From Ficedula albicollis (lineage: Eukaryota > Chordata > Aves > Passeriformes > Muscicapidae), in contig NC_021675.1 of NCBI RefSeq assembly GCF_000247815.1, positions 61,801,962-61,865,961 of the forward strand: a stretch of 64,000 nt of DNA, written 5' to 3'. Positions 1 to 62,323 of this stretch are shown piece after piece. Below the pieces are notes generated by a model that was not told where the DNA came from, did no database searches, and was given only the letters and a program-made list of their open reading frames with translations. Every line of letters starts with the position of its first letter. Position 1 is the stretch's first letter. Made by a program: the position numbers and the translations under genes.

Positions 1-1203
1 AACACAGTGCATCCAGATCCTGAAGTTTCTCCCTATTTCTTTACTACTACATCACTGAGTTCTGAATGAAGCAAAGGTGTGAAATTTCCCATAATTTCAT
101 TTAAACTGCTTCTCTTCCCCCCTCATCCATGGCTACTCTCCTGTGTGGTGCCCAGGAAAGCCTCAACAGAAAATATGCCTGTTCTGCTCACATTGAGCTG
201 GCTCCTGCCATGTCAGCCCAGCTTGTGAGAAGGTCCCAGGCCAGGATCTGCTCTGTGAGGGACCTGTGTGCAGGTAATAATAATCTATATTATCAATCTA
301 TTATAATCTAATAATAATCTAACTAGAGCTGAACACCTACTGCCAAGTACTGAAATCCCAAAGCTGCCCCTTTGGGTCTTGCTTTCCACATCTGTATAAC
401 TGGCCTACTCTGGAGTTCCTTGTGTGGATAGAAAGGGAGCACATGACTCTTGTGAGATGCAGATCACACCCTACATCAAGCTGGTGCTTTTTAGCTTTTA
501 AAATAGAAACCACCAAATTCCCTGTATGATGCAATTGCAGAGATCTTGCATTTCCAGGACATTATATAAACTCATCATGCTGCCTGGGCTATTCTGCATA
601 CATCTGTCATTTATAAGCAGAAACGAAGAAAATCCCTCAGCTTGTTTCTGAAAATCAAACATAAATGTGTGCGCTGCTCAGGGGACAATTGCTTGTCATC
701 TGTTTTTCAAGGGTTCTTTTAACAGAGATTCAGCCAGCCAACACATTGTTCTGCCATGCAGAAGCTGATCTCCAGAAAAAAAAAATAAAATTTATGCATG
801 TAAAAAAATTAGAATAAAGGGTTGTATGTCCCTTCATTACTGTTTCATTTTGCATTCTCTGTAATAGCCCATATCATTATAAATTCATGATGTAGTCCTG
901 TGAATGTCATTGTCATTTAGCATTAGTTAAGTACTGGTTAATAGAACCTCACCATGTTGCTGGGCCACATGTAATGAGCACAGTCACTGAACAGAGACTT
1001 ACTGTGAAAATTTTGCTGCTCCCTCAAAGGCTGTTTAACACTTGAAGTGTTATTAGCACTTTTATCATGTTGGCCAAATTTGACTTGTTACAACCCCTTT
1101 ATCCTAAAATGAATGACAATGGGATTTACTCTCATTTTTTAAGATAATAAGGGTATTTTTTTTTCTTTTTATCTTCTTTAGTATTGCCCAACCACCACCT
1201 TCC

Positions 1204-1205
<2 letters not shown>
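1..1205 (+). repeat. Large tandem duplication, copy 1 (cut by window start)
   Basis: This segment recurs almost unchanged at 1920-3171. The offset is 1919 bases before a 47-base insertion in copy 2 and 1966 after it. I noticed only a few substitutions, for example near 533 and 650. Similarity stops at the C tract at 1206. The copy is noncoding: short ORFs on both strands are simply repeated with it. Because X(1-1205), A(1206-1919), X' and then new sequence follow in order, the simplest reading is a duplicated unit A+X whose first A lies upstream of this window. Confidence 0.95.

Positions 1206-1235
<30 letters not shown>
1206..1235. repeat. C30 homopolymer at duplication junction
   Basis: Thirty consecutive C residues lie exactly where copy 1 of the large duplication ends. 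In copy 2 the matching position (3171/3172) continues into unrelated sequence with no C tract. The run is either a real poly-C/poly-G tract inserted at the junction or a sequencing or assembly artefact such as poly-G read-end calls. Confidence 0.9.
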
Positions 1236-1919
1236 AGGGTGATCACTGACAGCCGTGATGGATGAACTGGGAAAGAAATATTTATAGATATTCATATTGT
1301 TTTTATTTCCATCTCTCCATTCACTGCTAACCTTCCTTCATCCATCCCACATAACATGCCTGTCGTCTTTTATGCATTAATTCCAAATTCAGATTCTTCC
1401 CTCTTCTTTTTTTTTTCCTAGAATTTTATGGTCTTTGAAGATGATGACCACATCTGTTCTTTAGTTATCAAATATGTTTCTTATTTTAATGATTTCCTTT
1501 GTCTTTCTAAGTATCACCTTCAGCAGATCTAAAGTTTGGTCGCACTGATACTTTTCTCATCTCCCATTTACTCTAGCCTGGAGAGAATTTTGCTCCTCTT
1601 GCTCTCAGAGGCTTTCACTTCTCTCTGTCAGTTGTCACACAGCTGCTATTTGGGCAAAGTGTTCTGCCTTTAAGCTTATCTATTTCTGCTACCTTTGTCT
1701 TTTTGATTAGCTGATAAAGCAAATGGAATAAAAGACAGTTCACTCTACTTACTATAACTCCACTGATTGTACTTTGGTTTGGGATTTAATTTCTTTTTTT
1801 AAGCAACTGAGAAGTTGAACATCTTTGGAGGCTGTTTTTGTCTCTAATTAAAAATACTGAATACACAAGAAATTTTGAGTAGTCTCATATCACCTTGGGA
1901 TCTCCCCAGAATAGAGTGA
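1236..1919. other. Noncoding segment between the two large copies
   Basis: This segment is AT- and pyrimidine-rich DNA with no ORF of note and no recognised element. Under the A+X model it is the left part of the second duplicated unit, so a near-identical copy should lie just upstream of the window. Confidence 0.6.
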
Positions 1920-3171
1920 AACACAGTGCATCCAGATCCTGAAGTTTCTCCCTATTTCTTTACTACTACATCACTGAGTTCTGAATGAAGCAAAGGTGTG
2001 AAATTTCCCATAATTTCATTTAAACTGCTTCTCTTCCCCCCTCATCCATGGCTACTCTCCTGTGTGGTGCCCAGGAAAGCCTCAACAGAAAATATGCCTG
2101 TTCTGCTCACATTGAGCTGGCTCCTGCCATGTCAGCCCAGCTTGTGAGAAGGTCCCAGGCCAGGATCTGCTCTGTGAGGGACCTGTATGGAGGTGATAAT
2201 GCCAGGCCAGGATCTGCTCTGTGAGGGACCTGTGTGCAGGTAATAATAATCTATATTATCAATCTATTATAATCTAATAATAATCTAACTAGAGCTGAAC
2301 ACCTACTGCCAAGTACTGAAATCCCAAAGCTGCCCCTTTGGGTCTTGCTTTCCACATCTGTATAACTGGCCTACTCTGGAGTTCCTTGTGTGGATAGAAA
2401 GGGAGCACATGACTCTTGTGAGATGCAGATCACACCCTACATCAAGCTGGTGCTTTTTAGCTTTTAAAATAGAAACCACCAAATTCCCTGTATGATGCAA
2501 TTGTAGAGATCTTGCATTTCCAGGACATTATATAAACTCATCATGCTGCCTGGGCTATTCTGCATACATCTGTCATTTATAAGCAGAAACGAAGAAAATC
2601 CCTCAGCTTGTTTCTGAAACTCAAACATAAATGTGTGCGCTGCTCAGGGGACAATTGCTTGTCATCTGTTTTTCAAGGGTTCTTTTAACAGAGATTCAGC
2701 CAGCCAACACATTGTTCTGCCATGCAGAAGCTGATCTCCAGAAAAAAAAAATAAAATTTATGCATGTAAAAAAATTAGAATAAAGGGTTGTATGTCCCTT
2801 CATTACTGTTTCATTTTGCATTCTCTGTAATAGCCCATATCATTATAAATTCATGATGTAGTCCTGTGAATGTCATTGTCATTTAGCATTAGTTAAGTAC
2901 TGGTTAATAGAACCTCACCATGTTGCTGGGCCACATGTAATGAGCACAGTCACTGAACAGAGACTTACTGTGAAAATTTTGCTGCTCCCTCAAAGGCTGT
3001 TTAACACTTGAAGTGTTATTAGCACTTTTATCATGTTGGCCAAATTTGACTTGTTACAACCCCTTTATCCTAAAATGAATGACAATGGGATTTACTCTCA
3101 TTTTTTAAGATAATAAGGGTATTTTTTTTTCTTTTTATCTTCTTTAGTATTGCCCAACCACCACCTTCCAA
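1920..3171 (+). repeat. Large tandem duplication, copy 2
   Basis: This is the second copy of 1-1205. It carries an internal 47-base tandem duplication (2155-2248) that copy 1 lacks. Apart from that it differs by only a few bases. It ends at 3171, where the sequence diverges from the C tract seen after copy 1. It contains no gene. Confidence 0.95.
2155..2248 (+). repeat. Nested 47-bp tandem duplication
   Basis: Bases 2155-2201 and 2202-2248 are the same 47-bp unit, starting CCAGGCCAGGATCTGCTCTG. The last 20 bases of the units differ at about three places. Only the second unit matches copy 1 (near 236-282) closely, so the first unit was added in copy 2 or lost from copy 1. Confidence 0.9.
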
Positions 3172-4254
3172 GACTTCATCAAACAACAAAGTGTCAACCA
3201 CAAGCCAAAGGGGTAGAGTCCTTCTGGGACTGCCAGAGTGTCAGCTGTGTAATGCCTCAGTTCCACCACCTTGTAGGAGCTCAGCTTGGCTCCTTCTGAC
3301 CACAGTGATCAGTCATTTCCCCATCTTTCTTTTCTCCATCACTGGCACATGTAAGATGTTTTCCAGCAGTTTGTTCCCTGGTCTCCCCCAGCTGTCACTC
3401 TCCCCCGGGCAGAAGTGGGAGACAATCAGGAGTGACTGAGGCTCTCAGACAAGTTCTTAATATTCCAAGGTTTCTGCCCACACACTGATGTTCAGGAACC
3501 TCTGTTTCTCTCCACACAGCAGAAAGACATATTTCTTTCCAAAGAAAGCCAAGATGTTTCATCATCCAGAGGTACAAGCAATTATCAAACCCATGGTTCC
3601 AGTCCAGCATATTACTTGCCAGGAAAACAGCTCACTTGACATTACTTGTAGACAGTTTTCAGCATAACACAGTGAAAAATTCCTAAGAAAACACATTTGG
3701 CATTATTTTAGCCTGTTTCTGCTTAGTTCAGGAAATCCCTCATTCTTTTTGGTCCTGATTCCATTTAATTTCATTTCTATGGCAGTATTTGTTATATGGA
3801 AGTTGTTAGCTAACAGAAAAGTAAAATTAAAAAAAAAAATAGCACATCCATGGCCTTATTGAAACAACACTATTGTCTAAAATTCAAGCTTTTTTCCCTG
3901 ATCATGGCTACTTCCACGGCTTCATTACAATTCAGAGTATGTGTCTTTATGAAAAATTCCCCAGCCCAGCTCAGCAGAAGCCAAGGGGACTGGCTCAATA
4001 TCATGGCTGCTGGGTGGGATTTTGGGGCCAGTGACCTCTGAATAGTCACATTTTTATCACTGCAAACGTTTCCAACTCCCCCAGCTGTGAAAATGCCCTT
4101 TGGAGACCTGCCTAAGGTGGGCCAGGTGCTCCCAATACATATCTTTTTGTCTGCATTTGAAGCCCATGTTTGAACTGCCATACTCTGTTATGCTCTGAGC
4201 CTGTTCTGAGCAGGAATTTTGGTACTTTCTCCACCATTCTGCTAGGCACTCTGT
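3172..4254. other. Single-copy noncoding DNA
   Basis: ORFs up to about 100 codons overlap on both strands (for example 3870-4181 minus), have no recognisable domain and lack splice context. A short A run lies at 3830-3839. I see no element here. Confidence 0.6.
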
Positions 4255-4402
4255 CAGGAATCAGTTTTACTGATGGCTAGAGAAGAAAAGAAATTTGCTC
4301 TACCTTGGCAGCAGTGGGGCACATCTCTCAGGAATCAGTTTTACTGATGGCTAGAGAAGAAGAGAAATTTGCTTTACCTTGGCAGCAGTGGGGCACATCT
4401 CT
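4255..4402 (+). repeat. 74-bp exact-abutting tandem duplication
   Basis: Unit 4255-4328 is repeated at 4329-4402 with no spacer. I see two differences (AAAAG versus AGAAG, and GCTCT versus GCTTT). The unit begins CAGGAATCAGTTTTACTGAT. Confidence 0.95.
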
Positions 4403-5154
4403 TCTGAACCCTTCTGAGCCTCACTAAAACACATCTTTGGTGTTCTGCCTTGATAGTGACCACCAGCACAGCCGGAAACACTGCAAAGGCATCCAGTGAC
4501 AGTCAAGAGAGCACAGAAAAAATTTCCTTGAGAGCTATTTGCTTGGGTTCTGGGGGTACTTTTTGGTACCACAAAAAGGTGTTTCAGAGCTGTTTCTGTC
4601 ACCCCTCCTCCCCACAGAGCTCAGTGGGCTCACAGTGCCAAGGTGGCAGGAGCTGAGTGCAAAAGGGAACATGCAGGAGAAAACTGGACTGTCCTTTACA
4701 AAGTAATGGCCATTTCTTTCTGCTTTCTGATATGAAAATAAATGTTCCCTTTTCTGTGTTTAAAGTTATTGGCCTGCACTGTTCTTGCTTCATCTGGTGT
4801 CTTTCTCTTAAATCTCTGTTGTGCAATATGGATGTTCAAACATATTTGTACACTAGTCTATCACTATATTTTCTTTTCAGGTCCACAGTCCACACCATCT
4901 CAAAGAATATTAGATTTACTAATGATCCTTCTTTTGAAGCAAGGGTTTATCTTGTAGGAAGGAAATACAACTCTTCTGCTCAGTAGTTCTGTTCTTCCTC
5001 CATGACTCTGCTGACTAGCATAAAAATAGTAAAATTTCCAATTTTTACAATCTTCCCCTGTGAAGGTTTCAATTGGAAGATCTAAAACTCACTGTGTTCT
5101 CCTCTGTGCTGCTCACAAAAGACCCATTTTTGTACACATGCATAAAAATTTCCC
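4403..5154. other. Noncoding DNA
   Basis: Overlapping short ORFs lie on both strands around 4450-4990. The longest (4657-4986 plus, 109 codons) has a hydrophobic, cysteine-rich translation typical of chance reading of T-rich DNA. No feature is supported. Confidence 0.6.
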
Positions 5155-5202
5155 TAATCTAATCTAATCTAATCTAATCTAATCTAATCTAATCTAATCT
5201 AA
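5155..5202 (+). repeat. (AATCT)9 pentanucleotide microsatellite
   Basis: Nine perfect AATCT units run from 5156 to 5200. The lack of interruptions suggests the array is young and probably length-polymorphic. Confidence 0.95.
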
Positions 5203-12210: not shown

Positions 12211-12359
12211 AACCACTCATAGAGAGCTCTCTGACATTTCTGCCTTTTTCCTTGTCACTGAAAGAGATACAAAGAATTGGTGTGATTCAACCACTCATAG
12301 AGAGCTCTCTGACATTTCTTTTTCCTTTTCACTGAAAGAGATACAAAGAATTGGTGTGA
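12211..12359 (+). repeat. ~73-bp tandem duplication
   Basis: Copies at 12211-12285 and 12289-12359 are separated by three bases. Both run from AACCACTCATAGAGAGCTCT to AAAGAATTGGTGTGA and differ by a small indel in the T-rich middle. Confidence 0.93.
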
Positions 12360-24138: not shown

Positions 24139-24355
24139 AATAAAGAGAGGTCACACCTACTTATCCTCTCTCTTTATCTCTGCCTCTACAACTGGCCCCA
24201 AGTGAATATGTGCATATATGTTGACAGAAAGTAATGTACCAGGCAACAATAAAGAGAGGTCACACCTACTTATCCTCTCTCTTTATCTCTGCCTCTACAA
24301 CTGGCCCCAAGTGAATATGTGCATATATGTTGACAGAAAACAATGTACCAGGCAA
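24139..24355 (+). repeat. 109-bp tandem duplication
   Basis: Copies at 24139-24247 and 24248-24355 abut directly. Each begins AATAAAGAGAGGTCACACCT and ends ACCAGGCAA. The only clear difference is AAAGTAATG versus AAAACAATG near the end. Confidence 0.95.
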
Positions 24356-28404: not shown

Positions 28405-28503
28405 ACCTTCTGAAGCAAATATGATCTCCTAGCAGAAGAGAAGAATTTATAAGAGGGCAAAAGACCTTCTGAAGCAAATATGATCTCCTAGCAGATGAAT
28501 TTA
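28405..28503 (+). repeat. Short direct duplication (~32-46 bp)
   Basis: A 32-base unit ending CTCCTAGCAGA occurs at 28405-28436 and at 28464-28495 (offset 59) with no difference. GAATTTAT also follows both copies after different short inserts, so the duplicated unit may originally have been longer. Confidence 0.88.
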
Positions 28504-30415: not shown

Positions 30416-30763
30416 AAAAATAAATGTTTTTATTTGACTTTATTTTCAGGAATGCAATCCAATTTTGAACAGGGAAAAGTGGAAGGATTTAATTGTCTTT
30501 CAGAATTATAATACATCAAAAAATAATAAGTTACTCAAAATATATGTTTCAAAATAATTTAAACTAAACCTGTGGGCTGTAAAACTAAAAAAATAAATGT
30601 TTTTATTTGACTTTATTTTCAGGAATGCAATCCAATTTTGAACAGGGAAAAGTGGAAGGATTTAATTGTCTTTCAGAATTATAATACATCAAAAAATAAT
30701 AAGTTACTCAAAATATATGTTTCAAAATAATTTAAACTAAACTTGTGGGCTGTAAAACTAAAA
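30416..30763 (+). repeat. 173-bp tandem duplication
   Basis: Copies at 30416-30588 and 30589-30763 abut directly inside an A run, and I found one substitution (AAACC versus AAACT). Each begins AAAAATAAATG and ends GTAAAACTAAAA. The next duplicated block, a triplication, starts at the last base of this one. Confidence 0.96.
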
Positions 30764-30947
30764 TGCAACATTTAAGTATCTTCATTCATTCTCTTGATAT
30801 TTATAAAGACCTCACAGCTATTGAATGCAACATTTAAGTATCTTCATTCATTCTCATGATATTTATAAAGACCTTACAGCTATTAATGCAACATTTAAGT
30901 ATCTTCATTCATTCTCTTGATATTTATAAAGACCTCACAGCTATTGA
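30763..30947 (+). repeat. 61-62-bp unit present three times
   Basis: Units start at 30763, 30825 and 30886, each with ATGCAACATTTAAGTATCTT and ending CAGCTATT. The middle copy differs from the outer two at CTCATGAT and CCTTACAG. Outer copies 1 and 3 appear identical. Confidence 0.96.
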
Positions 30948-31260
30948 AATTTTGTTAATTTGGCTGGTCTAATAGCTGAAAAGGTTAAAAGAAGATCACA
31001 TCAGTAATTCCAGATTTTCAACAGTTTTCAGTGAATCAGGAGATAAGTTGGTAGAGTTATAATATAAGTTCCTATACTTTAGACTGATTCTGTAACAATG
31101 TGTAAAATAGACTAATCTTGATCCAAATTGTACAGAAAGTCAAAGTAATCCTGCCTGGTTTTTCATAATTATTGATACCAAAGAATTTTTTTTTGTATGC
31201 TATATTCATGCAATATATGAAATTACAGACACCATGTACTAACTATAGAAGCTGATTGTG
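30948..31260. other. AT-rich noncoding DNA
   Basis: About 300 bases between the triplication and the AT minisatellite hold no gene or recognisable element. Confidence 0.6.
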
Positions 31261-31355
31261 ATATTTATATAAATATTTATAAAAATATTTATAAAAATAT
31301 TTATATAAATATTTATATAAATATTTATATAAATATATTTAATATTTATATAAAA
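31261..31355 (+). repeat. 12-bp AT minisatellite
   Basis: Six 12-base units run from 31261 to 31332. Four are ATATTTATATAA and two (31273 and 31285) are ATATTTATAAAA. Degenerate units continue to about 31355. Only A and T occur, so the array could unwind easily or form small hairpins. Confidence 0.93.
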
Positions 31356-32257: not shown

Positions 32258-32423
32258 TTGTGGGGTTTTTTTACAAGATATTACTAAATAGAGGCACTGC
32301 AAGTCCAGAAATATTTTTCTTCAGGCTGAGTTTCTCCTGAGGTCATTGCCACACATCTCAGCTGCCTGTGCTTTGTGGGAACACAGAACACTCTTAATTG
32401 GCACACAGAAATTAGTGGAAGCA
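32258..32423 (+). repeat. 166-bp dispersed duplicate, left copy
   Basis: This segment is repeated with no difference that I can see at 33924-34089, 1666 bases away, in the same orientation. It includes TGTGGGGTTTTTTTACAAGA and ends GTGGAAGCA. Flanks of the two copies are unrelated. It resembles no transposon I know. Confidence 0.96.
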
Positions 32424-33923: not shown

Positions 33924-34089
33924 TTGTGGGGTTTTTTTACAAGATATTACTAAATAGAGGCACTGCAAGTCCAGAAATATTTTTCTTCAGGCTGAGTTTC
34001 TCCTGAGGTCATTGCCACACATCTCAGCTGCCTGTGCTTTGTGGGAACACAGAACACTCTTAATTGGCACACAGAAATTAGTGGAAGCA
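33924..34089 (+). repeat. 166-bp dispersed duplicate, right copy
   Basis: This is an identical copy of 32258-32423. The sequence before it (GAGCTGCCCTC) and after it (TGGGTTATTACA) differs from the left copy's flanks. It has no poly-A tail, inverted termini or clear target-site duplication, so it does not look like a transposition. Confidence 0.96.
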
Positions 34090-34922: not shown

Positions 34923-35152
34923 TCTACTCTGTGTGCTTTTCCCTGTTTCACTATTGGTAAAACTTTCTCCTAAAGTATCATTGAAACAAAGTTGTAATGT
35001 GGAATGTGCATTCTTGAAATACTCGCTGCTATTTATTTCTACTCTGTGTGCTTTTCCCTGTTTCACTATTGGTAAAACTTTCTCCTAAAGTATCATTGAA
35101 ACAAAGTTGTAATGTGGAATGTGCATACTTGAAATACCCACTGCTATTTATT
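34923..35152 (+). repeat. 115-bp tandem duplication
   Basis: Copies at 34923-35037 and 35038-35152 abut directly. They differ at about three bases (GCATTCTT/GCATACTT and ACTCGC/ACCCAC). The shared unit contains CTACTCTGTGTGCTTTTCCC. Confidence 0.95.
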
Positions 35153-36684: not shown

Positions 36685-36789
36685 TTCTGGGATTTCAAAA
36701 GTCAAACTGCTCATTTGAACAGCAGAGCTGGTCAGACTTCTGGGATTTCAAAAGTCAAACTGCTCATTTTAGCAGCAGAGCTGGTCAGA
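36685..36789 (+). repeat. 53-bp tandem duplication
   Basis: Copies at 36685-36737 and 36738-36789 abut. Both carry TTCTGGGATTTCAAAAGTCA and GCAGAGCTGGTCAGA. The middle differs at TTTGAACA versus TTTTAGCA. Confidence 0.93.
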
Positions 36790-39145: not shown

Positions 39146-39286
39146 GGCTTCTCACTTCTTCACTTCTTCAAAATGCCTTCCAAAATCACACAAAATTTGC
39201 CTTTTTTAAGCTTTTCGGCTTCTCACTTCTTCACTTCTTCAAAATGCCGTCCAAAATCACACAAAATTTGCATTTTTTAAGCTTTT
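39146..39286 (+). repeat. 71-bp tandem duplication
   Basis: Copies at 39146-39216 and 39217-39286 abut. Each begins GGCTTCTCACTTCTTCACTT and ends AAGCTTTT. I count two differences (CCTTCC/CCGTCC and GCCTTT/GCATTT). Confidence 0.95.
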
Positions 39287-41176: not shown

Positions 41177-41181
41177 AAAGC

Positions 41182-41405
41182 AGAATTTGGCTTACTAAGA
41201 CTGCCATAAAGGCTCAGCTTGTAAGAACAACACATTTAAATCATCAGAGAGCTAAGATGAGTGCTAGAAGCACTTTGGGTTTATATTTATGCTAGAATTT
41301 GGCTTACTAAGACTGCCATAAAGGCTCAGCTTGTAAGAACAACACATTTAAATCATCAGAGAGCTAAGATGAGTGCTAGAAGCACTTTGGTTTTATATTT
41401 ATGCT
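41182..41405 (+). repeat. 112-bp tandem duplication
   Basis: Copies at 41182-41293 and 41294-41405 abut. They begin AGAATTTGGCTTACTAAGAC and end TATATTTATGCT. One difference was seen (GGGTTT versus GGTTTT). The (TA)n tract just upstream is not duplicated. Confidence 0.96.
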
Positions 41406-43815
41406 TGAAGAACACGAGTATCTTCAGTGTGCAAAGCGAGGCACAAGTGACAAGAGACCATCATGAAAGATCATGGGAAGAAATGGCCCCACAGCATATC
41501 AGTCACCTAATCAGTGCCAGCTTTTCTCTCCTATGAACCACTGGAAGAAAACTTCAAAATTAAGTTTGATATGGAGGAGAGTAACTGGGCAAATTTCCTG
41601 AAGGACCCTTGAATCCCAAAGTAGTTCAATTTCACGTGATTGCCCTCAGAGTTGCAAGACACTTTCAGGAAATTAGAAGCATATACCACAGGAGAAAGGA
41701 AACTGGGAATGGGGAAAGACTTTGAGGGTGAGGACATGTCTTAAAAATTGTCAGCTCAGATTAAAGGGCTTGGAGACTATAATATGGAAATTCTGAAGAA
41801 CTAAGTGTCCATCAAGGAAGTATACAACAGATGGCTATAGCAAGACATTTAGAAAGGTGGAGCACCTCTACTGAGGAAAGGAATAAGCAGGTTCTTTCTA
41901 GAATTTACTTGCCACTTACTTCCCACTTACTCAGACCCTGCAGAGAATTCTTTTGGTAAACACATTCTTTAAGTATTAGTTTCTGATTAAAATCTCACAC
42001 AAATTTTTCAGAAGAAAAGGAGTTATTTCTAATACTGAAAGTATTTGAAGCATCTGAAGTTTTTTGTAAAGGTGCAATAACAGCAGTCTGCAAGCAGCAC
42101 ATCATCATTTGTGACTAATCAGCAAATCCAGATGGCACATAAATTGACAAGAAATGTCATCAATGCAAATTAACATTTTCAAGCCATAAAAAAAGAACAC
42201 CAGCTTCATGTTACAACTGAAAGAATGGCTCCATTTTGGAAAGTCATTCACTATCATGGTATAGACAATGACCCCTGTCAAAAGATTTAACAAAGTTCAC
42301 AGGTCAATGCAGTGGGAGGATCTCTGCTGTCCTGACTCTTAGTAATAGACTAATCATGCAGAAAAAGTTTTAAGTGTTAATAATTTAGTGAATGAAATTC
42401 ATGCCTTTTGACCCTGAATGAAGAGACAAGCGAGATTCATCTTGTCTTCAATTAAGTTTATTTTTAAGCACCTTATCTGAGCCAAGACTCAGAGGATCCC
42501 AATATTTTTATGCCTTTTTTCAAGCTGCAAATTAAATCTGTAGATACTGAGTGTTGGGAAAACTTTTTCACACAAGAGCCGTGAAATCCTGATTCTGCTG
42601 AAGTCAGTGGGAGTGCTGCCATTTCTTCAGCAGGGCCTGGACTTCAGCCATGCTGTTCAAAGTCTCTGAGCGCTGTCTTGGCTACGCTACCCACATGCTG
42701 TTCCCAATGGGTTCACTGGCAGGAAAAAAATCAACGCTGTGTAAATGCTGAATATTGCAGCTGAAGGAGAGGCAGTATCACAGTCTGAAGAATATGCCTG
42801 AGTTCAGTTTTGAAATTTCTAAGATGCAGAAGCCATTTCATTGTTGAAGCGATAAGTGGCACGCAATCCATCGGCACTGAAACCAAGCTCATGCTAAGAT
42901 GCTGCATGGGGGTTTCATGGCACTCTAAATGTAAAGAGTCCTGGTGGGACTGCATAGCAGAAAACTACAAGGTTCATTCACACTGTGGACTACACAGATC
43001 AGAATCAGATGCAAAAATTTGCACCCTGTAAATCTGTGAAAAAGATAAGATGAACCCAGAGAATTACTATCTCAAATTTCAGAAAAGGCTCTACAGATAA
43101 AATTGTCTACACATTCTTTCGTTTTTTTTGTGTAGTGAGATGAAGCCATCATCTATATGTACGCAAAGCCAAGATTTCAGATTCCAGACTGCTTTGCTGT
43201 GTGGTCAGAGCTGTGAGGAGCAGCAGTGAAATATCTTAGTCAGGGCCATAGCAAGGGGGCAAGTGAAGAAGTGGATAACATCCTCATCTTGCTGCCTTTA
43301 AACTTTCAAGCAAAAGGACAAAACAATGGGCACCAGAATATCTAAGACTTTCCCTGTAGCTTGGATAAACTTCTGCCAGCAATAGTTGCATTTGTGACTG
43401 AGCTTGTCTGGCTTTCAGGGGTGTATTTACCCTATTGGTATTTTGATGCTAAATGCTTTACTCTACCACAGCTGTATCCACAGAAAGGGAGCATTGCCTG
43501 CCCAAGATTTTATGTTCCTGTACAGCAGGGCATTCTTAGGGTAGTCAGTGTCTTACTTGCTCATTTTAAACACCTCCCCAAATTCAATGGAACTGTATAT
43601 CTATGCAAAATTAAATACTTATGTCAAATGTTTGCTGAACAGAGCCTAAAGGTAGAAGAAAATCTTGTACTTGAAATAGCTGTAGCATAAATTGTTTATA
43701 TTTTGCCTTTGGCTAGATTAGTGCGTCTCTATTATCATTACTTTTTCATTTTAATGTTATACCACTGAAGACTTAGACTAGCACCCATAATAATTATGCT
43801 TGAAGACTTGGGGTA
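41406..43815. other. Noncoding DNA
   Basis: No gene is supported. The 109-codon ORF at 43361-43690 plus reads as a hydrophobic chance translation without a recognised domain. No repeats were seen. Confidence 0.55.
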
Positions 43816-43911
43816 ACATACCTATCAATTATATCACTTCACTCCTCTGTGTTTCTGGGTATACATACCTATCAATTATATCACTTCACTCCTCCTCTGT
43901 GTTTCTGGGTA
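43816..43911 (+). repeat. 47-bp tandem duplication
   Basis: Copies at 43816-43862 and 43863-43911 abut. The second has one extra CTC in the CTCCT run. Each starts ACATACCTATCAATTATATC and ends TTCTGGGTA. Confidence 0.94.
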
Positions 43912-45060: not shown

Positions 45061-45220
45061 TACAGGACCCTCTCTCCTGCTTTGAGAGGACATAATTTAA
45101 ACACAGCTATTCTTTGGACACCCAAATAACCAGTGCTATGTACAGGACCCTCTCTCCTGCTTTGAGAGGACAGAATTTAAACACAGCCATTCTTTGGACA
45201 CCCAAATAACCAGTGCTATG
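45061..45220 (+). repeat. 80-bp tandem duplication
   Basis: Copies at 45061-45140 and 45141-45220 abut exactly. They begin TACAGGACCCTCTCTCCTGC and end CCAGTGCTATG. Two differences were seen (ACATAATT/ACAGAATT and AGCTATT/AGCCATT). Confidence 0.96.
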
Positions 45221-48480: not shown

Positions 48481-48509
<29 letters not shown>

Positions 48510-48527
48510 TTTGTAATGTTTCCCCCC

Positions 48528-48558
<31 letters not shown>

Positions 48559-48589
48559 AAAAAAAAAAGAAAAAAGGTTTGTAATGTTT
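48481..48589 (+). repeat. A/C homopolymer locus with duplicated 14-mer
   Basis: The order is A27 (48481-48507), GGTTTGTAATGTTT (48508-48521), C27 (48522-48548), A20-G-A6 (48549-48575), then GGTTTGTAATGTTT again (48576-48589). The A-run plus 14-mer unit is therefore present twice, with a pure C tract at the junction. Translations through this locus are homopolymer artefacts. Confidence 0.95.
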
Positions 48590-50361: not shown

Positions 50362-50409
50362 AATAAAAAGCTACTACTCCAAAATGTTTTCCTTTCACAG
50401 GTTTGGAAG

Positions 50410-50534
50410 GACAGAGCTATTAATATCCTGAAGGACTTTGAGGACATCCATTTGTTCCTGTTCCTACTGGGAGACAGAGCTATTAATATCCTGAAGGACT
50501 TTGAAGACATCCATTTGTTCCTGTTCCTATTGGG
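50410..50534 (+). repeat. 63-bp tandem duplication
   Basis: Copies at 50410-50472 and 50473-50534 abut. Each begins GACAGAGCTATTAATATCCT. Two differences were seen (TTGAGGAC/TTGAAGAC and CTACTGG/CTATTGG). Confidence 0.95.
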
Positions 50535-52285: not shown

Positions 52286-52496
52286 GCAAACTGTAGCTGT
52301 CAGAAATATCACTTTACAAGCACCACTCTGCTCTTTCCCAGCAGCCTTTTGAGATAAATCAGAGACACAATCTCAGGTCTTTGGCTTACAGAAGCAAAAC
52401 TGTAGCTGTCAGAAATATCACTTTACAAACACCACTGGATGCTCTTTCCCAGCAGCCTTTTGACATAAATCAGAGACACAATCTCAGCTCTTTGGC
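52286..52496 (+). repeat. ~102-bp tandem duplication, more diverged
   Basis: Copies at 52286-52386 and 52394-52496 are separated by seven bases. They share CTGTAGCTGTCAGAAATATC and CCCAGCAGCCTTTTGA. I count several differences (an extra A, CAAG/CAAA, CTCT/GGAT, GAGAT/GACAT, AGGTC/AGCTC), so this pair looks older than the others. Confidence 0.93.
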
Positions 52497-55400
52497 TGAA
52501 GGATCCATTTTTCCATTTTTGCATTTGAGCTTATGGCACATCCCATTTTTGTACAGGCAGACAGTGAAGTGCCTGGCAAAGCCATCTGTCAGCTCATAGC
52601 CACAAGGCTGAGACCCTGGAGACTCCTCAGTTCCTAGTGTTCATTTCCAAATCAGGATATCTACAAATAGACCTGATTCTTCCAAATGAGAGGCCAGACT
52701 CCACCAGAGTATATCTGTACCACCACCTATGGCCTTGATGCTCAGGACTTCAATGTGTCTGAGACTACCCTTAAATGTCATTGAGTAAGGGATTTCTCTG
52801 TAAATACCATCATCTCTCTCTTATAAAAATCAACCCCTTGCCTTTCATAACTTCATGACTTTTGAAAATACTTTTCCCCTATTTTGTGTGGAAACCTACA
52901 GATGAGAGGAAGCATTGCTGCTTCCACACTGTCATTATCTTCACTATAACAAACAATCTTTATTGCCTCAAGCTAAATGTAACATTTCAGAGTTAAAGAG
53001 CCCAAATCAATATTTTCATTATCCACACTATAAATTATCCATTAATGGAAGCTCATTAGGGAAGGCACCATCTTTGTCTCCCTTCACCTCCGAGCCTTGT
53101 TCTGGGCTCACAGCTGGCATTGCAGGCTGTGCAGCTTTATGGAAAGAGTTTCCCCTGGAAATTACAGGGAAGCCTGCTGGTTCAGGGCTTCAGGAAGAGA
53201 GAAGGTAAGAAAATAAGGCACAGCCAGAGCTCTTTTCCTCTTTCCTTTGGGAAGAGCAGGAAGATAAGAAATTGGTAATGAATGAATATACTCACCTGTT
53301 TTGCAAGCTTTGGGCAGGGATGAGGGTGATGGGAAGCACTCTCTTTGAAAGGTGAGAGTGCACCAGGACCACATTCTCCCCCTGGTTCAGACAAGATGTA
53401 CTTAACTCAGTTGCCTCCAAGAAGCAGAATATGAAGCTGGAAATCCACAGAGTGGTCACCACAGCTAGATTAAAATACCAGAGGATATTTAATTCTGCTG
53501 ATTTCACTGAATCCTTTCTCAGATCTCCGAGGTGCCCACTAATTCCACCAGAAAAGTAAATAACAGCCAAAGTTGGCAGATTTGAGTATCAGATGACTTT
53601 TTGTGCACATTGAGCTAATCAAGGTAAAAGGGCAAGCAGCTTGCCTTAATCAGCTATTTTCCTAATATGAAGTACCCAAATATTTCATCCACATGAAAAA
53701 TGCATCTGAATTTTTAATTTTTTTAAAGTTTACATTAAATTTTATTGGATTTAAACTATTTTATTTAGAAAATAAGGATAAGTCCTGTATAAAAGGATGG
53801 TAGCTCAAACCACAGTATAGAAGGGAGCCACTGCTTCCTGAAACCCTCTCTGCTGGTAGCCACTGGCAGGGTAGTTTTAGGGTTTAAACTCTTCATAACA
53901 TTCAAGAAATCTGGAAACTGCTAATATCATGCAACCATATAACTGGGTGGTTTACATTGCCTTCTCTTGTGCTTGAACACATCCAGCTTGACCATATACC
54001 AGCTAAATAGAAAAAAAAAACACGTGTAAAAGGAAAAAGCAGCAGATAACACAGAGCTGGGGAAGTGATGGGAAACTTCACTTGAGTAAATTATGTTGCC
54101 TGGTTAAGACACAGTGAGAAAATATGGGAGCAAGTTTGCATTCTTTGCCATCCATGTGCTGACCAGACCACTCAAAAATGTACAAGTTCATTTCATGTTC
54201 TGTAAAAATGTTCCTAGCAGGCAGTTCTGTTTCTTCTGGGGCTTTTTCCAAGTTATTCTCCACGAATGCCTTTGAACATATTCCTGCTGAAGGAGAAACC
54301 AGAGAAAGTAGCTGCAATAAGTGAGAAAGATTTCTTTAATCCCAGAAGATCCCAAATGATAGGTTTCTAGGACTGTTGAAGGAAGCAGAGCAGCAATGGG
54401 CATTCCCCTGGAGCAGTCGTGGCCCTTTCAGCGCTGGTGCATGCTCCAGGGACAGGGTCCCTTCCAGAAAGACACAAATCCAAAGGACCCACAGAAGCAC
54501 ATCAAAGATATTTATAATTGTCCAACATTTGAGTGCAAGGCAGACACCCAGCATGTTTGTTTCAGCTGCTCTTCTTAAAGCAGAGGGTGTGAGAGTTGTT
54601 CCCACCACCACATCCCCTTGGAGAGCTGCCCCAAGGACAGGCAGAACTGCAGCTACACAAGTACTTACATTCTTTTCTCCTTTATGCCAAAAATAATTGC
54701 TGGAGGATCTACTTCTTTATTTTTTTCTTACAACATTGACAAAGAGTTTTGCTTTCTTAAACTGATGCATCATCCGAGGTGACTGAACCTTTTAAAGAGC
54801 CTCCTAATTCTCATCAAACCCTTCAGCCCAGACTCGATGCCAAGTGACCCGAGTGTACCTATAAGTAGATTTCCTAACTCTGACAGGACAAATCCATAAT
54901 TCATTTCATTTATATTGTCAAAGTGCTTACAGCTATGCCTTTTGTGCCAAGTAAAGGAATAAGCCCAGGTGCAACAGATTTTAATTTGTGTGAGGAAAAT
55001 ACAGCTGAGTCATCTTCTGAGTTTCTGAGACAAAGATTTATTGGTTTATGTCAGTGATGCACCAAATTTTTCGTCTCAATTATTTTGAGTGAAACATTTC
55101 TCAGGGGAAAACAAAGTGCTACTTTATTTAAATTTTCTTTCTGTAGATATCCAGACTGAATGGAAAAATACTTTTCTTGTCCTTATTCAACCCAAACTTC
55201 ATTTTACTTGGATCAAAACTAAAAAGGAGTTACATATCTCTCTCCTCATATTCATAATGAAGAAAATTCACTTTTTTGTGGGGAAAATACAAGGAACAAG
55301 AGTTTCAAACTGTCTAATGTTTTCACCTGGAAAGCACCATGTGATTGAAGAGATTCTATTTTTATCTTCTCCATTCAACACTGTGACCTCACTTTCTAAC

Positions 55401-56061
55401 CTCCAGGCTGCCCACATGTGCTCCTGCCTTTTCTTCTCCCATGCAGCTCCATAACTGCACCCAAGTCCTGGATGTGTTTGTGTGGGTGGCCATGGAGACA
55501 CAGCTGAGCTCTGGGGTGAGCTGTTATCTCATCCTACACTCAGGGACAAACAGTCTGCTGCTGTTTGTGCTCCAAGCAACCAAAATATGCAACATTTGCT
55601 CTATCTTAGCTGTTCAAAGCTGCATTTTTGGTTCATCTCTCTAATCTGTTTGCCATCATGGCCTCCAATTTAAATTTGGATTAAAGGCAATTTGAGGCAA
55701 ACATATTTACTTTTTGATGCATTTGTGCAATTGTAGTCCAGCTATAATGCATATGAGGAGTAATTCACGCCAGGCATTCAGACTGAAGTCAGGATGGGCA
55801 GAGGTCCAAGTTCTTTAGAAAGCTTGTCCTCAGTGTCTGAGAGGTACATCAGAGGACTGCCATGGGGAGCCTCTTCACCTGTGGACAGGCAGGTGAGGAC
55901 CTGAGCAATTCATCCTCTTTCCCCACAGCAGGCAGAGATCAGCAGCAAACACAGATTTTGCCTCCAGCCTCCCACCCCCAGAGCTCTCTGACATCTGCCA
56001 AGTCGTACCTTTCTTCCCAGTGGCAGAGAAAATCTTCAGAGTATTCTGTGTTTGTATTTAG
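52497..56061. other. Noncoding DNA
   Basis: About 3.5 kb without a supportable gene. ORFs up to 121 codons (55089-55454 plus) have no recognised domain. No repeats were seen. Confidence 0.55.
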
Positions 56062-56151
56062 CACAGATAAAAAAATCAACTGAAAGGAAAACCCTTTACA
56101 TCCAAACACAGATAAAAAAATCAACTGAAAGGAAAACCCCTTGCATCCAAA
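56062..56151 (+). repeat. 45-bp tandem duplication
   Basis: Copies at 56062-56106 and 56107-56151 abut. Each includes CACAGATAAAAAAATCAACT. They differ at CCCTTTACA versus CCCCTTGCA. Confidence 0.94.
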
Positions 56152-57572
56152 ATTGCTGTTTGTTCTGCTGTCTATACCTTCTACACCTCTACTACAGACC
56201 TGACAATGAGTTGAGTGTGGGCACTGTGGGAATCTGAGGCAGTGAAGCTGTAAATACCCCTAGGACAGTTTGAGTAAGTTGAGCTAAGAGTGCGCAGCAC
56301 CTTGGCAGGGGTCTTAGCATGCTGCAAAATTTAACATTCTCATTTTTAATTTCCACCTTCAGATATTTCAAATTATTCTCACCAGCATCCATGCTTCATA
56401 CCACAGCTTTGCATTTATTTGCAGAATGTTTCATATTCTGGATAAGAGTGTGTTGATCTGTTAGCTTCCTTTTTGCTTAATTTTATATTTCTTTTCCTTT
56501 GTGATGACATTTCATCATTTTTTCTACTGCTGTTTCCTTTGGTTCTGAGCAAGCCTTAAATCCAGAGTATGATCACAAGATTTTTGTCTAGTTATCATCT
56601 CTCCAGCAGCAATGTTTCCCCTGCAGCTGACCATCCAAGGTGAGCCTTCATTGCTGTGCTGTGGCTCCAGTCACTGCACTGATTCACTCGTACTGTAGGA
56701 AATTCATATGTGTTTGTATCCAGATATTTCAGAATTGATCTATGTCCTCATGTTTCATAAGCAGAGACACTCTGGAAAAAAAACAAATGCTGAGACTCAC
56801 CACGAGGGCTCACAGGAGCCACATTCCCTGTTTGCATTCATAAATCTTCTCTGGCATACACAGCCATGGGCTCAATAATATATTATTTACCTGAGCAATT
56901 ACCACTGATCAACAACTCCCATGAAGAATTCTTGTGTGGAGAGTTCTTGTGTGGAGAATTCTTGTGTGTATGTGGGCTGAATACAATGCATGAACTGACA
57001 ACCTCCAAATGCTGTTTATTTACATGGGAATAGCTCGTTTCTCACAATGAATATTGGGGCAATCATGGTCTCTTTCTAGTCATTCCTCTTCTAGAAAAGA
57101 GATGGCAAACTCTCATGAGTTGCTCTCTGTACAACTGGAAGCATATAAAGAACACATTGTGGTAAATTTACATTACAACTCCATCTCATAATTCAAACCT
57201 GCACAAACAGTCAGATGGGAAAAAAATTCTATCATGCACTGCTAAATAATATAAACTTGGTATTAATGACAACAAAAGGGAATGTTATAAGAGGAAAGAC
57301 AACAATGGCAGCCACAATTTGCATCAACCCACAAGCCCTGTCTATTTTATCCCTTCCTTAGAATAACAGAATAAGGAATATATGTTTCACTCACTGCTGC
57401 TATTGCCATTACAGTCAGCATTACAGATGGAAGGTCTGTCATTGAGAGAAGCTGATGAAGGTTGTAAAGCATCAGTTTTGGCTGGCAAAAACTAGAAGAA
57501 ACTAGAACTAAGGAAAGCTGCTAGGCAGGTAAGGAAATCAGAGTACAAAACATAGACTGTAACTTTTGAGTA
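56152..57572. other. Noncoding DNA
   Basis: No gene was recognised. A 15-bp repeat at 56926-56968 is listed separately. Confidence 0.6.
56926..56968 (+). repeat. 15-bp unit, three copies
   Basis: GAATTCTTGTGTGGA occurs at 56926, as a one-base variant (GAGTTC) at 56941, and again at 56956, the last unit lacking its final two bases. The copies abut directly. Confidence 0.93.
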
Positions 57573-57676
57573 ATGGATAAATTATTTCATGGTTTGAGGA
57601 GGTTGTTTTTGTTTTGGGGGGGGTTATGGATAAATTATTTCATGGTTTGAGGAGGTTGTTTCTGTTTTGAGGGGTT
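57573..57676 (+). repeat. 53-bp tandem duplication with G8 at junction
   Basis: Copies at 57573-57623 and 57626-57676 share ATGGATAAATTATTTCATGG. Copy 1 ends in GTTTT plus eight G (57616-57623). The matching place in copy 2 is GTTTTGAGGGG. This is a third junction with a G/C homopolymer, though a short one. Confidence 0.92.
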
Positions 57677-57688
57677 TTATATGGTGGT

Positions 57689-57710
57689 GTTTGTTTGTTT
57701 GTTTGTTTGT
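57689..57710 (+). repeat. (TTTG)n microsatellite
   Basis: About five GTTT units follow the duplication after 12 bases. Confidence 0.9.
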
Positions 57711-58553
57711 TCCATGTTTCCTTGTGCTCTTATCTGCTCTCTGACATGAAGTTACAACAGCATCAGCCTGTCATGGAGTACTTGGCCCTCACAGCCTCTC
57801 AGCTTTCTGATGAATAATAAATCACAGAAAAAGGGAGATAAGACCAGATGGGAATCCAAATTAAGAGTCTATTCCTGCAGTCATGAAAAGCAACAAGTTA
57901 CCTGCAAGTGAGAGTTGTAAGGATGAGGGTGGGCTGGGAATTAAGACAAAACTTATTTAGTGGGCTTGTTTCAGCTCTCAGTTTTTGTAGAAATTTGCTT
58001 TGTTTCCCATCCCTTTACACATTAAGGAAAGCATATTATTTGTCTCACTTATTCAGATCAACAGTAATGGACAGTAAAATCTGGTTTAGAATGCCACCAA
58101 GCTATCACTTCATTGATATCCTCACAGATGACAAATTAGCCAAACAAAACACACTTTGTTTGGCAGGTTGAGTTTTGAATCAATTTTCCAGTTGAAACAC
58201 TTGCATGGAAGCAACTACTGGCCTGTCTCAGAGCTCACAGTCCAGTTCACACAGAGGGAGGATGAGCTCAAGGCAGGACTAACAAGGCTGCACTGAATAG
58301 TCTGAGAGCAAAATCAGGGAATCTTGCAAACTGCACTCTGCTCCCAGCACAGGAATACAACAGAACTTTTTTCTAGAAAGCTTGATTGAGAGCATCCAAT
58401 GGCTTTAAGACTTAAGAATGAGTAGAGCAATGCAAACCCAAAGACTTACTAGATAAATGTGTGAAGCAGATCAGATAGAAAGAAAAAGAAGGGGAAATAA
58501 ACATTTAAGTCATAGAAAGACCTCTAGGGAGTCTGCACAACCTCTGCAGCATC
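57711..58553. other. Noncoding DNA
   Basis: No gene or element was recognised. The best ORF (57908-58171 plus, 87 codons) is unremarkable. Confidence 0.6.
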
Positions 58554-58681
58554 ATGGATTTTCCAGACTGCATGCAAACCGAGATCTTTCGGGATTTGTC
58601 TAACTAACTACCACCAAAATGGATTTTCCAGACTGCATGCAAACCGAGATTTTTGGGGATTTGTCTAACTAACTACCACCA
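58554..58681 (+). repeat. 65-bp tandem duplication
   Basis: Copies at 58554-58618 and 58619-58681 abut. They begin ATGGATTTTCCAGACTGCAT and end CTAACTACCACCAA. Two differences were seen (GATCTTTCGGG/GATTTTTGGGG). One falls in a CpG, a common vertebrate mutation site. Confidence 0.95.
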
Positions 58682-61600
58682 AGTTATCACCATTAAAATA
58701 AGGCCAGAAATTATTCCAGGACTGATTATGCTGTGCAGAGAAGTATGGCATAATGGCACAAAAGGATCTCGTTGCCAGACAAAAATAAAAACTATCTGAA
58801 TGGAAGCTTTTTAGGATTTGATCCCAACATTGTGGTTCAATATGGAAAGGGAAAAATATGCTTACAGTGTCTCTGATATCTTTTATGAGACAACAGAGCT
58901 TTAACTCCTGAATGGACAACAGTGATGTGGCATCATGTTTCTTATTCAGCTTTAACATAAGACACATGCAAGTTATTTTTGTTTGTATTGGGCTGGCAGA
59001 TGCATCCTTTTGGAAAAACGTGCAATGGGAAACTTGCTAGACAGTGACGCAACACAACGTGCAGTGCCAAAGCAAACTTTGTGTCTGTTTCTTTTCACAA
59101 TGACGTTAAATGAATTGGAAGCAAATCCACTGGAGTGTCTGGAATAGTGCTCATCTAGAAACCAAGCTCGAGTCAGACTCCCACATTGTTTCTTTGCATG
59201 AGCCAAGAAGCCAAGAGGTCCTTGTTCTGCAGGTCTCCTTTTCCCCTGCTCCATCAGGGGGTTTGGGCAGCCCTGTGCCACCAAGAACGGTCAAGGCTTT
59301 ACTTCCAACGAAATTTCATCCCCTCTCCTGCCTTTAAACACCCTGAATTTCATAGGAAGGAGATGACAGGATTCATTACTGTCTTAGAATGATTTTGCTC
59401 AAAGCCATGTACAGTAAAACAGTATAGAACACAGTATGCAATTTTTCCAAGCTGTATGCAAGAAACCCAAATAAGTAAAGCACCTTTAGACTCTTTGATT
59501 TGTCGCAAACTTCCTCTCCCTTTAGCTATTCCCATGCAGCAACTACTAATACCATCCTCTAGCTGAAAGATGGGAACCTCACACTATAAATCACCCTAAA
59601 AAAGAGTCTCCATCAGTAAACTTCCCACCATCCAGGTCTTGGTTTGCTTCCCTTCAAAAACAAGGAGGCTGTGCAGTCCTGTGCTTCCAACACAGGAAAT
59701 TTCCCTACAGAGGTCCCCTTGTCAGCAAAGGCCTTTATATGTTCTTAAAAAGCACACAACAGCCTTTTCCCCTCTCTAAATGTCATGACAAGTGTTTTTA
59801 TTCTATGTCTGCTACAAATGAAACTCAGTTTCTGGACAGGTACTTTATGTAGGTGTATAACCAAACTGAGGGGCTTTGCCTTTCTAGCAGGCATTTAGCC
59901 ATTATGGTTGGTGCTCCTTTTGGAAAGCATGCTTACAGATCCCTATGGAACTTTATCTTGTGCAGTTTGGGCTTTTTTTGCCATTGCCAGTCAGAACACT
60001 GATCCAGAGCCAAAGGAACATGGTAGAAGCTGAGCTTTTCCATAGGGTAATGGTTGGATTTACTCATGCACTCAACGAATCTCTTGGATTAATTTCCTTC
60101 AGGATTAATTTCATTTATAAAATACATAAAAATATTGTAGACTTTCCCAAGGTGATTTCAGGCTTTAAATCTAAACCCACTTATTCATATATCTAACTTG
60201 TTACACATGACCAGTTCTCTATTGATTTCTCTTTATATTGAGTTCAGTGGAGCTACTCACATGTGTCAGGGTAAGCAAAAGTGTAAGTGTTTGTAGGACA
60301 GTGATTTAATTGCTCTGATCTCATTTTTTTTTTAGCTGCTCTTCATGAAGAATTGACTGTTAGAGGCAAACACCAAAGGGGACAGTAGAGTTTCAGTCTT
60401 TGGCATTTTCAATTTAAGTTTGCAAACATCTCCTAGAAATATTCATCACCATTCCAAGGAAACTTTAACGAGAGTTAACTGGGTGAAATTTAACAGCCTG
60501 AAACAGACAGAAAATCAGAATAAAATTTTCTTTCTCATCTTAAATGTAGTGGAATCCTCTGGAAAATTTTTCAACACTAAATATTTGACTCTCTCATCCT
60601 TTACAATCTGTCTAATATTTTTATGTTTTTATACTTATATGTGTACACATATGCAGTATATAGTAAAACATATGATGTGATCACATATATTTCTATGTGT
60701 TTAATTTCTCTGTATTTAATTTCTATCGATGTATACAACATATTTCTATGTTGCATACCTGCTACATGTATTATATTGCACATACTATAGAATAATTTGG
60801 CAAATACTTATGCCTTTGCTTTTATTTCCTGTTTCAAAGCAACTACATATTTGTTGTCCCACAATATTGATTATCCTGCACAAAGCTATAACTTGTTCTC
60901 ATTCCTTTTTAGAATTTAAGACCACTGTTGGCTTTCCCTGCCCAATCAGTAGCTGGAACATTAAGAGAAAAGACTGAGCACTGAACCTATTTCTCAGTGT
61001 ACACCAGCCTACCCTCGTGCTGACCATGTTCAAGAAACTGCAGTAGGAATTTTCTTTTTCCTGCTGAGGAGAGGATGAAGGACGAAAGAATGACCAATTA
61101 TAAACTCTGTTGTCTTTAGATGAAAGAACCTTTTTGTGGTGTTCTTCAATCTCTTGTTTGGGCTGTCAACAGCAATTTGATAAAGAATGTTCCTATGTCT
61201 GACCTGTTTTTTCAAGATAGTAACCTATATTGTGTATCATCTAAAGCCAGGGGATAAGCATCCATTATACTCTGTACTGCTGTTCCTGCAAGCTGAGCAC
61301 AGCCTTTAAAACCCAGATAAGTTGATTGATAGTTGTGTTGAGAAAGCTGCTACTAACGATATTTTAGTTAAAGGGGGAAAAATTAAAGTTTCTTTAATCT
61401 GATTCTCCCCCACCCCCAACACCACACTTCAGAGGCCAAAGCTCATGATAACTGTTTTGTGGTGAATGGTCAATTGTTACAAAATTCTAATTGGTTCTGG
61501 GTCAGTCCCTTTGAAATGGCTGCTGTGCTCTAGTAATTTTTTCAATTAATTCTTAACAACTGACAAAACTTTGGATCTTGTCAAAAATCGTTCAGATTTT

Positions 61601-62090
61601 TATAGTAGGCAAGAACATGGAACAAGATTAGCCTGGATTAAGAAAGATTCCTACATACATTATCACCAAGGTTATAATTATAGTTTAGCTCTCCTTTTTC
61701 TTTGCTCTCAAAATAATGATTAACTAGCTCAGCAGGGTTTTCTTCCCTGTAAGTACTTACTGAATACTTTTATAAGGTTAGATTAGAAGAATATGTGGAT
61801 TCCTCGGTTGATTTATGAATAATTTGGGCAAATGCTATGTTCAGCTAGGAATCTTACTACATATATTTTCACAGAACTAGATTTTTTGGACATGTCCTGC
61901 ACAGAACAGAACCTTTGTTAGTCAATCTTAGGTCCTCACTAAGTCAAGATGTGACCAAGGACCAGTTCTCCAGCACTATTACTTAGAGAAGCCTCAAGAT
62001 TGTTTTCCCATTGAGTTCAGATTTCAAACAGGTAGAGCATGTTGAAGGGCAAAGTCAGACTACATCTTCTTTCACCAGAAAGTCTTCAGA
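58682..62090. other. Noncoding DNA
   Basis: No gene is supported. ORFs up to 103 codons (58973-59284 minus) are unrecognised. At 60640-60790 there is an AT-rich zone with repeated ATTTCTATG, TATTTAATTTC and ACATAT words. Confidence 0.55.
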
Positions 62091-62323
62091 CAGACAATGA
62101 AACTACCTTTAAGGTCTCTTCTCTACAGAAAAAAAAAATCTGAATATAGTGGCTGATTACATCAATCAAATGAAACTACCTTTAAGGTCTCTTCTCTACA
62201 GGAAAAAAAAATCTGAATATAGTGGCTGATTATATCAATCATACAGACAATGAAACTACCTTTAAGGTCTCTTCTCTACAGAAAAAAAAAATCTGAATAT
62301 AGTGGCTGATTACATCAATCAAT
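62091..62323 (+). repeat. 73-80-bp unit present three times
   Basis: Units lie at about 62091-62169, 62170-62241 and 62243-62323. All contain TGAAACTACCTTTAAGGTCT, an A9-A10 run and ATATAGTGGCTGATTA. The middle copy differs (CAGGAAA for CAGAAAA, TATATC for TACATC) and lacks the leading CAGACA that units 1 and 3 share. Outer units are nearly identical. Confidence 0.95.

What the first reader, a model, noticed from the sequence alone, without database searches (positions are those of the whole stretch)
1..62323. Exceptional density of short, recent two-copy tandem duplications
Twenty-one separate loci carry a unit of about 32 bp to 2 kb repeated head to tail, mostly with no spacer and about 0-4% mismatch, plus one exact 166-bp dispersed pair. 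Sequences, unit lengths and contexts are unrelated, so this is not one satellite family or transposon. Most lie between 28 and 62 kb. Either a local mutational process (template switching or slippage at replication, end-joining with duplication) has acted repeatedly and recently, or the assembly has left many unmerged overlaps. This is the strongest pattern in the window.
Basis: partly seen in the sequence, partly recalled or inferred. Interest (0 to 1): 0.8.

Follow-up and report, generated by a model that had tools for sequence, protein, structure and literature searches.

The report
False tandem duplications from genome assembly
The many short head-to-tail duplications in this stretch, probably of a bird genome, look like an assembly error in which two overlapping or allelic pieces were laid side by side, and not like a biological feature.

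Summary
It is very probably not biology. The signature is algorithmic: in 41 of 75 pairs (264 kb contiguous plus 60 kb elsewhere in the same genome) the copies share exactly 32 identical bases before the first difference, against 14 of 655 simulated mutated duplications. A count without that detector gives 38 of 113 exact runs exactly 32 long, with at most 7 of any other length. Runs of 16-1321 C look like gap fillers; 7 of 16 have matching sequence abutting both sides. Where a 1.9-kb overlap was assembled twice, one copy lacks a 47-bp tandem duplication that the other carries; two triplets read allele A, B, A. Density is 0.297 per kb in the window, 0.290 upstream, 0.174 downstream, 0.168 in six samples elsewhere (window against rest p = 0.25). 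These are most likely unmerged contig overlaps, mostly between two alleles: known false duplications. No reads could be examined.

The parts
1..1205 (+). left copy of a 1.94-kb unmerged overlap (it begins 684 bp upstream of the window)
   Evidence: the 684 bases before the window plus 1-1205 align to 1236-3171 with 5 mismatches in 1889 aligned bases and one 47-base gap; ends exactly at the C-run
1206..1235 (+). C30 run, read as gap filler between the two overlapping contigs
1236..3171 (+). right copy of the 1.94-kb overlap
2155..2247 (+). 47-bp two-copy pair, absent from the other assembled copy of the same locus; first 32 bases identical
4245..4402 (+). 74-bp two-copy pair
12211..12359 (+). 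74-78-bp two-copy pair; first 31 bases identical
24139..24355 (+). 109-bp two-copy pair
28405..28495 (+). exact 32-bp copy, 27-bp spacer, second copy
30416..30763 (+). 173-bp two-copy pair
30762..30948 (+). three copies of 61-62 bp in the order allele A, allele B, allele A; B and the third copy both begin 32 bp before the first difference
34923..35152 (+). 115-bp two-copy pair
36685..36789 (+). 53-bp two-copy pair; first 32 bases identical
39146..39286 (+). 71-bp two-copy pair; first 32 bases identical
41182..41409 (+). 112-bp two-copy pair
43811..43911 (+). 47-50-bp two-copy pair; 32 identical leading bases counted from 43816
45061..45220 (+). 80-bp two-copy pair: 32 identical, variant, 14 identical, variant, 32 identical
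48481..48589 (+). 41-bp copy, C27 gap filler (48522-48548), 41-bp copy with one mismatch; the copies are mostly poly-A
50410..50534 (+). 63-bp two-copy pair; first 32 bases identical
52288..52497 (+). 109-111-bp two-copy pair; first 32 bases identical
56062..56151 (+). 45-bp two-copy pair; first 33 bases identical
57573..57674 (+). 53-bp two-copy pair; first 36 bases identical
58554..58682 (+). 65-bp two-copy pair; first 32 bases identical
62086..62322 (+). three copies (spacing 73 and 80 bp) in the order allele A, allele B, allele A; first 33 bases of the unit at 62096 identical
32258..32423 (+). first copy of the exact 166-bp dispersed pair (not explained)
33924..34089 (+). second copy of the exact 166-bp dispersed pair; flanks unrelated

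Best explanation
The pairs are false duplications made by a word-based (probably short-read) assembly of a diploid animal. Neighbouring contigs that overlap, but differ at heterozygous sites within the overlap, were not merged. They were placed end to end in the scaffold with a gap of zero, one or a few bases, or with a run of C as gap filler. The right-hand contig starts 32 bases before the first differing site because the assembly graph branches there (a word of about 32-33 bases), so both branches begin with the same word. In the three-copy arrays a small contig from the other allele is sandwiched between two contigs of the first allele. Shown: the fixed 32-base lead, C-runs with matching ends, the A-B-A order, one assembled copy lacking a duplication that the other has, the same pattern in the flanks and in one sample of another contig. 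Inferred: that C-runs are gap fillers, that the differences are alleles of one individual, the exact assembler step and its word size.
For: 41 of 75 pairs have exactly 32 identical leading bases, against 14 of 655 simulated duplications (units 40-140 bp, 3% mutation) run through the same detector; in the window alone 10 of 19, and 13 of 19 within 31-33. Without that detector, 38 of 113 exact runs of 18 bp or more at offsets 30-300 are exactly 32 long and no other length has more than 7. Of 16 C-runs in 264 kb, 6 have matching ends within 5 bp on both sides, against 27 of 1391 random positions; a seventh, C30 at 1206, has a 1.94-kb match abutting both sides, seen only with a longer search than the control used. 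The left copy of that overlap lacks the 47-bp tandem duplication of the right copy. Two triplets read A-B-A. Copies abut with 0 or 1 extra base in 58 of 75 pairs; the differences are 75 transitions and 48 transversions, far from the 1:2 of random error (p 5e-10). The 32-base lead is also in the flanks (16 of 29 and 11 of 17 pairs) and in one C16 sample (4 of 4).
Against: 34 of 75 pairs do not have the exact 32-base lead (5 have 33; 11 have leads of 89-272), so a second assembly step or some true duplications are needed for those. Of six 10-kb samples from elsewhere only one (L024 on C16) shows the signature; the other five hold 6 pairs without it, and two of them hold no pair. Three of the six C-runs with short matching ends involve poly-A, where a match is cheap; 9 of 16 C-runs and both N-runs show no abutting match by these tests. 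Pair density is somewhat higher in the window and upstream than in the rest (p = 0.03, split chosen after the fact). No reads were available, so depth and spanning reads were not examined.
Confidence: 0.96

Rival explanations
1. A real mutational process (template switching, slippage, or end-joining with duplication) made many recent tandem duplications here, whose copies have since diverged by a few percent.
For: The copies are head to tail and unrelated in sequence between loci; their differences are transition-rich as expected of natural substitutions; the density is somewhat uneven along the genome.
Against: Random divergence does not put the first difference at base 33 in more than half of the pairs. 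It does not put C-runs between copies, and it does not by itself explain why a second assembled copy of the same locus lacks one duplication, unless that one is heterozygous.
Confidence: 0.02
2. The copies are one and the same sequence duplicated through sequencing or gap-filling errors at contig ends (homotype false duplication), not two alleles.
For: In 9 pairs whose first mismatch is at base 81 or later the mismatches lie near the end of the left copy, although selecting on a late first mismatch partly forces this. Several C-runs lie next to homopolymers or GC-rich sequence, which are hard to read.
Against: 75 transitions against 48 transversions is not what random error gives; the A-B-A triplets recover the same A variants twice.
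Confidence: 0.2
3. A minisatellite or satellite family.
For: Tandem arrangement.
Against: Unit sequences and lengths are unrelated between loci and the arrays have two copies, three at most. A satellite-like 65-bp array elsewhere in the genome (L022:488-1300) looks different, with many copies.
Confidence: 0.01

Closest known systems
False heterotype duplication as defined by the Vertebrate Genomes Project (PMC9516828; passages seen)
   Same: Both alleles of a heterozygous stretch placed in one haploid assembly; gaps, or incorrect gap filling, between the copies; [quoted passage not shown]
   Different: Here the units are short (42-122 bp in the pairs with mismatch at base 33) and the copies abut directly in 58 of 75 pairs; read depth and read k-mers could not be examined.
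Duplicated overlapping and contained contigs (DOC, DCC) of Kelley and Salzberg 2010 (PMC2864568; passages seen)
   Same: Two haplotype contigs that should be merged sit at adjacent places in the scaffold; the two-copy pairs resemble the overlapping type, the A-B-A triplets the contained type.
   Different: The assemblies studied there (chicken, chimpanzee, cow, dog) were of long Sanger reads (recalled); the 32-base lead here points to a word-based assembly.
False tandem duplicates in the chicken genome (Zhang and Backstrom 2014; not read, seen only as cited in PMC5217101)
   Same: Nearly identical artificial tandem duplications in a bird reference assembly.
   Different: The chicken copies are described in that citing passage as 99.9% identical; here the copies differ by about 2%.

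Membership tests
False heterotype duplication | Gap between the duplicated pair on the same scaffold | tested here: inconclusive
   A C-run lies between the copies at 2 of 21 loci in the window; 7 of 16 C-runs in 264 kb have matching ends; in 58 of 75 pairs the copies abut with 0-1 base. That C-runs are gaps is inferred.
False heterotype duplication | Half (haploid) read depth over each copy | not testable with these tools
   No reads available
False heterotype duplication | Discordant or spanning linked read pairs | not testable with these tools
   No reads available
False heterotype duplication | Heterozygous single-copy k-mers in each copy | not testable with these tools
   Needs read k-mers; the differences are transition-rich (75:48), which fits alleles but also old true copies
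Unmerged overlapping or contained contigs (DOC/DCC) | Adjacent contig ends share an unmerged near-identical overlap, or a small contig matches inside its neighbour | tested here: met
   By sequence only, contig limits inferred: overlaps abutting C-runs; fixed 32-base lead; A-B-A triplets
Unmerged overlapping or contained contigs (DOC/DCC) | Mate pairs fit better when the duplicate is superimposed on its partner | not testable with these tools
   No reads available
True recent tandem duplication | Differences between copies fall at random along the unit | tested here: not met
   First difference at base 33 in 41 of 75 pairs, against 14 of 655 in simulation
Minisatellite or satellite family | Shared unit or many copies per array | tested here: not met
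   Units unrelated; two copies, at most three

The most novel reading that the evidence does not exclude
A minority of the pairs, those with long exact leads (89-272 bases, 11 of 75) or the exact 166-bp dispersed pair, are true, very recent or heterozygous duplications of the sampled animal.
Probability: 0.07. Interest if true: 0.2.

Novelty: not a real feature. Interest (0 to 1): 0.08.

Why it matters
It is a warning rather than a discovery: anyone counting tandem duplications, indels or minisatellites in this assembly would largely be measuring the assembler. The fixed 32-base lead and the C-run gap fillers give a cheap sequence-only test for such errors. If many differences are true alleles, each false pair also hides a heterozygous site.

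Tried and rejected
A hotspot confined to the window was rejected by comparing with 200 kb of flanks and 60 kb elsewhere; a mild unevenness remains. Two-colour Illumina dark-base reads as the source of poly-C were my first idea; it was dropped when the flanks showed C-runs of up to 1321 bases, which fits a gap filler, and a G-run of 493 turned up on C1, as expected if a scaffold was reverse-complemented. One G-run is thin evidence for that last point. Single spacer bases between copies were checked for always being C: 7 of 18 rows have C, so they are not all filler. A skew of differences toward the end of the left copy was seen in 9 of 9 pairs whose first mismatch is late but is partly forced by the selection. 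Rfam and ARAGORN (bacterial settings) gave no hit in the window, and ten window ORFs out of the 72 of at least 90 aa gave no Pfam match above its cut-off, with two below it. CR1-type tail motifs, recalled, gave no match. Whether the 166-bp pair has further copies genome-wide could not be learnt; it has only two in the 324 kb held. Genome-wide counts of C- and G-runs could not be obtained.
Full report
What is there. A uniform detector (exact 12-base seeds, offset 25-300, adjacent copies) finds 19 pairs or triplets in the window. The 1-3171 pair and the pair around 48522-48548, which it does not report, make 21. The 166-bp exact pair at 32258 and 33924 is also real in the letters; its flanks are unrelated.

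Where it lies. The window is G000:C9:61801962-61865961 in a genome of 1.118 Gb and 21,385 contigs; C9 has 70.4 Mb. Genome size, chromosome-size contigs and a homeodomain gene in the downstream flank (Pfam PF00046, E 1.8e-21) fit a vertebrate, and the small genome fits a bird. From memory, the totals resemble the collared flycatcher assembly FicAlb1.5; that was not tested, and the papers found under that name were seen as a listing only.

Not confined to the window. With the same detector the window has 19 pairs (0.297 per kb), the 100 kb upstream 29 (0.290), the 97.5 kb downstream 17 (0.174), and six 10-kb samples from C1, C9 and C16 10 pairs (0.168); window against the rest p = 0.25. Of 83 raw rows, 8 were dropped before these counts: 7 from a 65-bp satellite-like array on C1 and one with a repeated start. 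The six samples vary: 2, 3, 4, 0, 1 and 0 pairs. Window plus upstream is denser than the rest (48 in 164 kb against 27 in 157 kb, p = 0.03, a split made after seeing the data), and within the window 16 of 21 loci begin between 28 and 62.3 kb (one-sided p = 0.03). Uneven heterozygosity would do this, but that is inference.

The 32-base signature. When the copies of each pair are compared from their common left edge, the exact match ends after exactly 32 bases in 41 of 75 pairs and after 33 in 5. Implanting random duplications (40-140 bp, 3% mutation) into the same DNA and running the same detector gives 14 of 655 at 32. A count that does not use the detector, all maximal exact runs of at least 18 bases at offsets 30-300 in 264 kb with low-complexity runs left out, gives 113 runs of which 38 are 32 long; no other length has more than 7, and offsets 301-571 give one run in all. 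I know of no mutational process that counts to 32 in unrelated sequences; a word-based assembler does. A gapped realignment finds the first mismatch at base 33 in 35 pairs (fewer than 41 because some first differences are indels); in 34 of these 35 the match after the last mismatch is also 32 bases or shorter, as expected if a longer shared word would have been merged. By place, the lead of 32 is found in 16 of 29 upstream pairs, 10 of 19 in the window, 11 of 17 downstream and 4 of 10 elsewhere, the four all in one sample on C16.

The gap fillers. The 264-kb region holds 16 runs of 12 or more C, from 16 to 1321 bases long, and no G-run; on C1 one sample has a C-run of 32 and another a G-run of 493. 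I read these as gap fillers, which flip to G where a scaffold is reversed. In 6 of 16 the sequences left and right of the run match within 5 bp of the run, against 27 of 1391 random positions (Fisher p 7e-7); three of these six involve poly-A. The C30 at 1206-1235 fails that test, which looks only 400 bases each way, but is a seventh by a longer one: the 684 bases before the window with 1-1205, and 1236-3171, both abutting the run, match over 1889 bases with 5 mismatches and one 47-base gap. The other nine C-runs, and the two N-runs in the region, show no abutting match by these tests.

Two further internal controls. The 47-base gap just mentioned is one unit of the tandem duplication at 2155-2247: of two assembled copies of the same locus one has it and the other does not, and its lead is 32 bases. 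In the triplets at 30762 and 62096 the first and third copies carry the same variants and the middle one the others; at 30762 the middle and the third copy both start 32 bases before the first variant, as two branches leaving one node of an assembly graph would.

How it works. Most likely a word-based assembly of a diploid animal split at heterozygous sites. The contig from one branch starts with the shared word of 32 bases. The scaffolder placed the overlapping contigs next to each other, and the gap step joined them directly (0 or 1 extra base in 58 of 75 pairs) or left a filler of C. The differences, 75 transitions and 48 transversions in 5,632 aligned bases (2.2%), look like natural variants. 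The class with leads of 89-272 bases (11 of 75) is probably made at another step and is the least certain part.

Against this reading. No reads could be examined. Nearly half of the pairs lack the exact 32. Of the six samples from elsewhere only one shows the signature. The 166-bp pair is not explained.

Known or new. Such errors are described: allelic contigs placed side by side (PMC2864568, passages), heterotype false duplications in zebra finch, hummingbird and platypus assemblies with gaps between copies (PMC9516828, passages), and false tandem duplicates in chicken (Zhang and Backstrom 2014, seen only as cited in PMC5217101). I saw no text on a fixed lead length, but searched only with the terms and saw those results as listings.

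Noticed in passing
L013:3344-3803 (window coordinates 77344-77803): A 460-base C-run lies in the same long open frame as a homeodomain (L013:1833-2258, minus strand; Pfam), so a naive translation reads about 150 glycines there.
   Followed up: partly
L013:7880-9310: About 1.4 kb of a five-base repeat that translates as KGKER repeats; it may be a real microsatellite.
   Followed up: no
L022:488-1300: A satellite-like 65-bp array on contig C1, unlike the two-copy pairs.
   Followed up: no
L025:2787-3279: A run of 493 G on contig C1, probably the same gap filler in a reversed scaffold.
   Followed up: partly
L012:1-2500: 2,500 N begin at the base after the window's end; a scaffold gap or a withheld stretch, which cannot be told apart here.
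   Followed up: no
32258-32423 and 33924-34089: Exact 166-bp copies 1,666 bp apart with unrelated flanks; only two copies in the 324 kb held. Cause unknown, possibly a misplaced gap fill.
   Followed up: partly
31261-31354: AT-rich 12-bp array (about 8 copies) that is also self-complementary.
   Followed up: no
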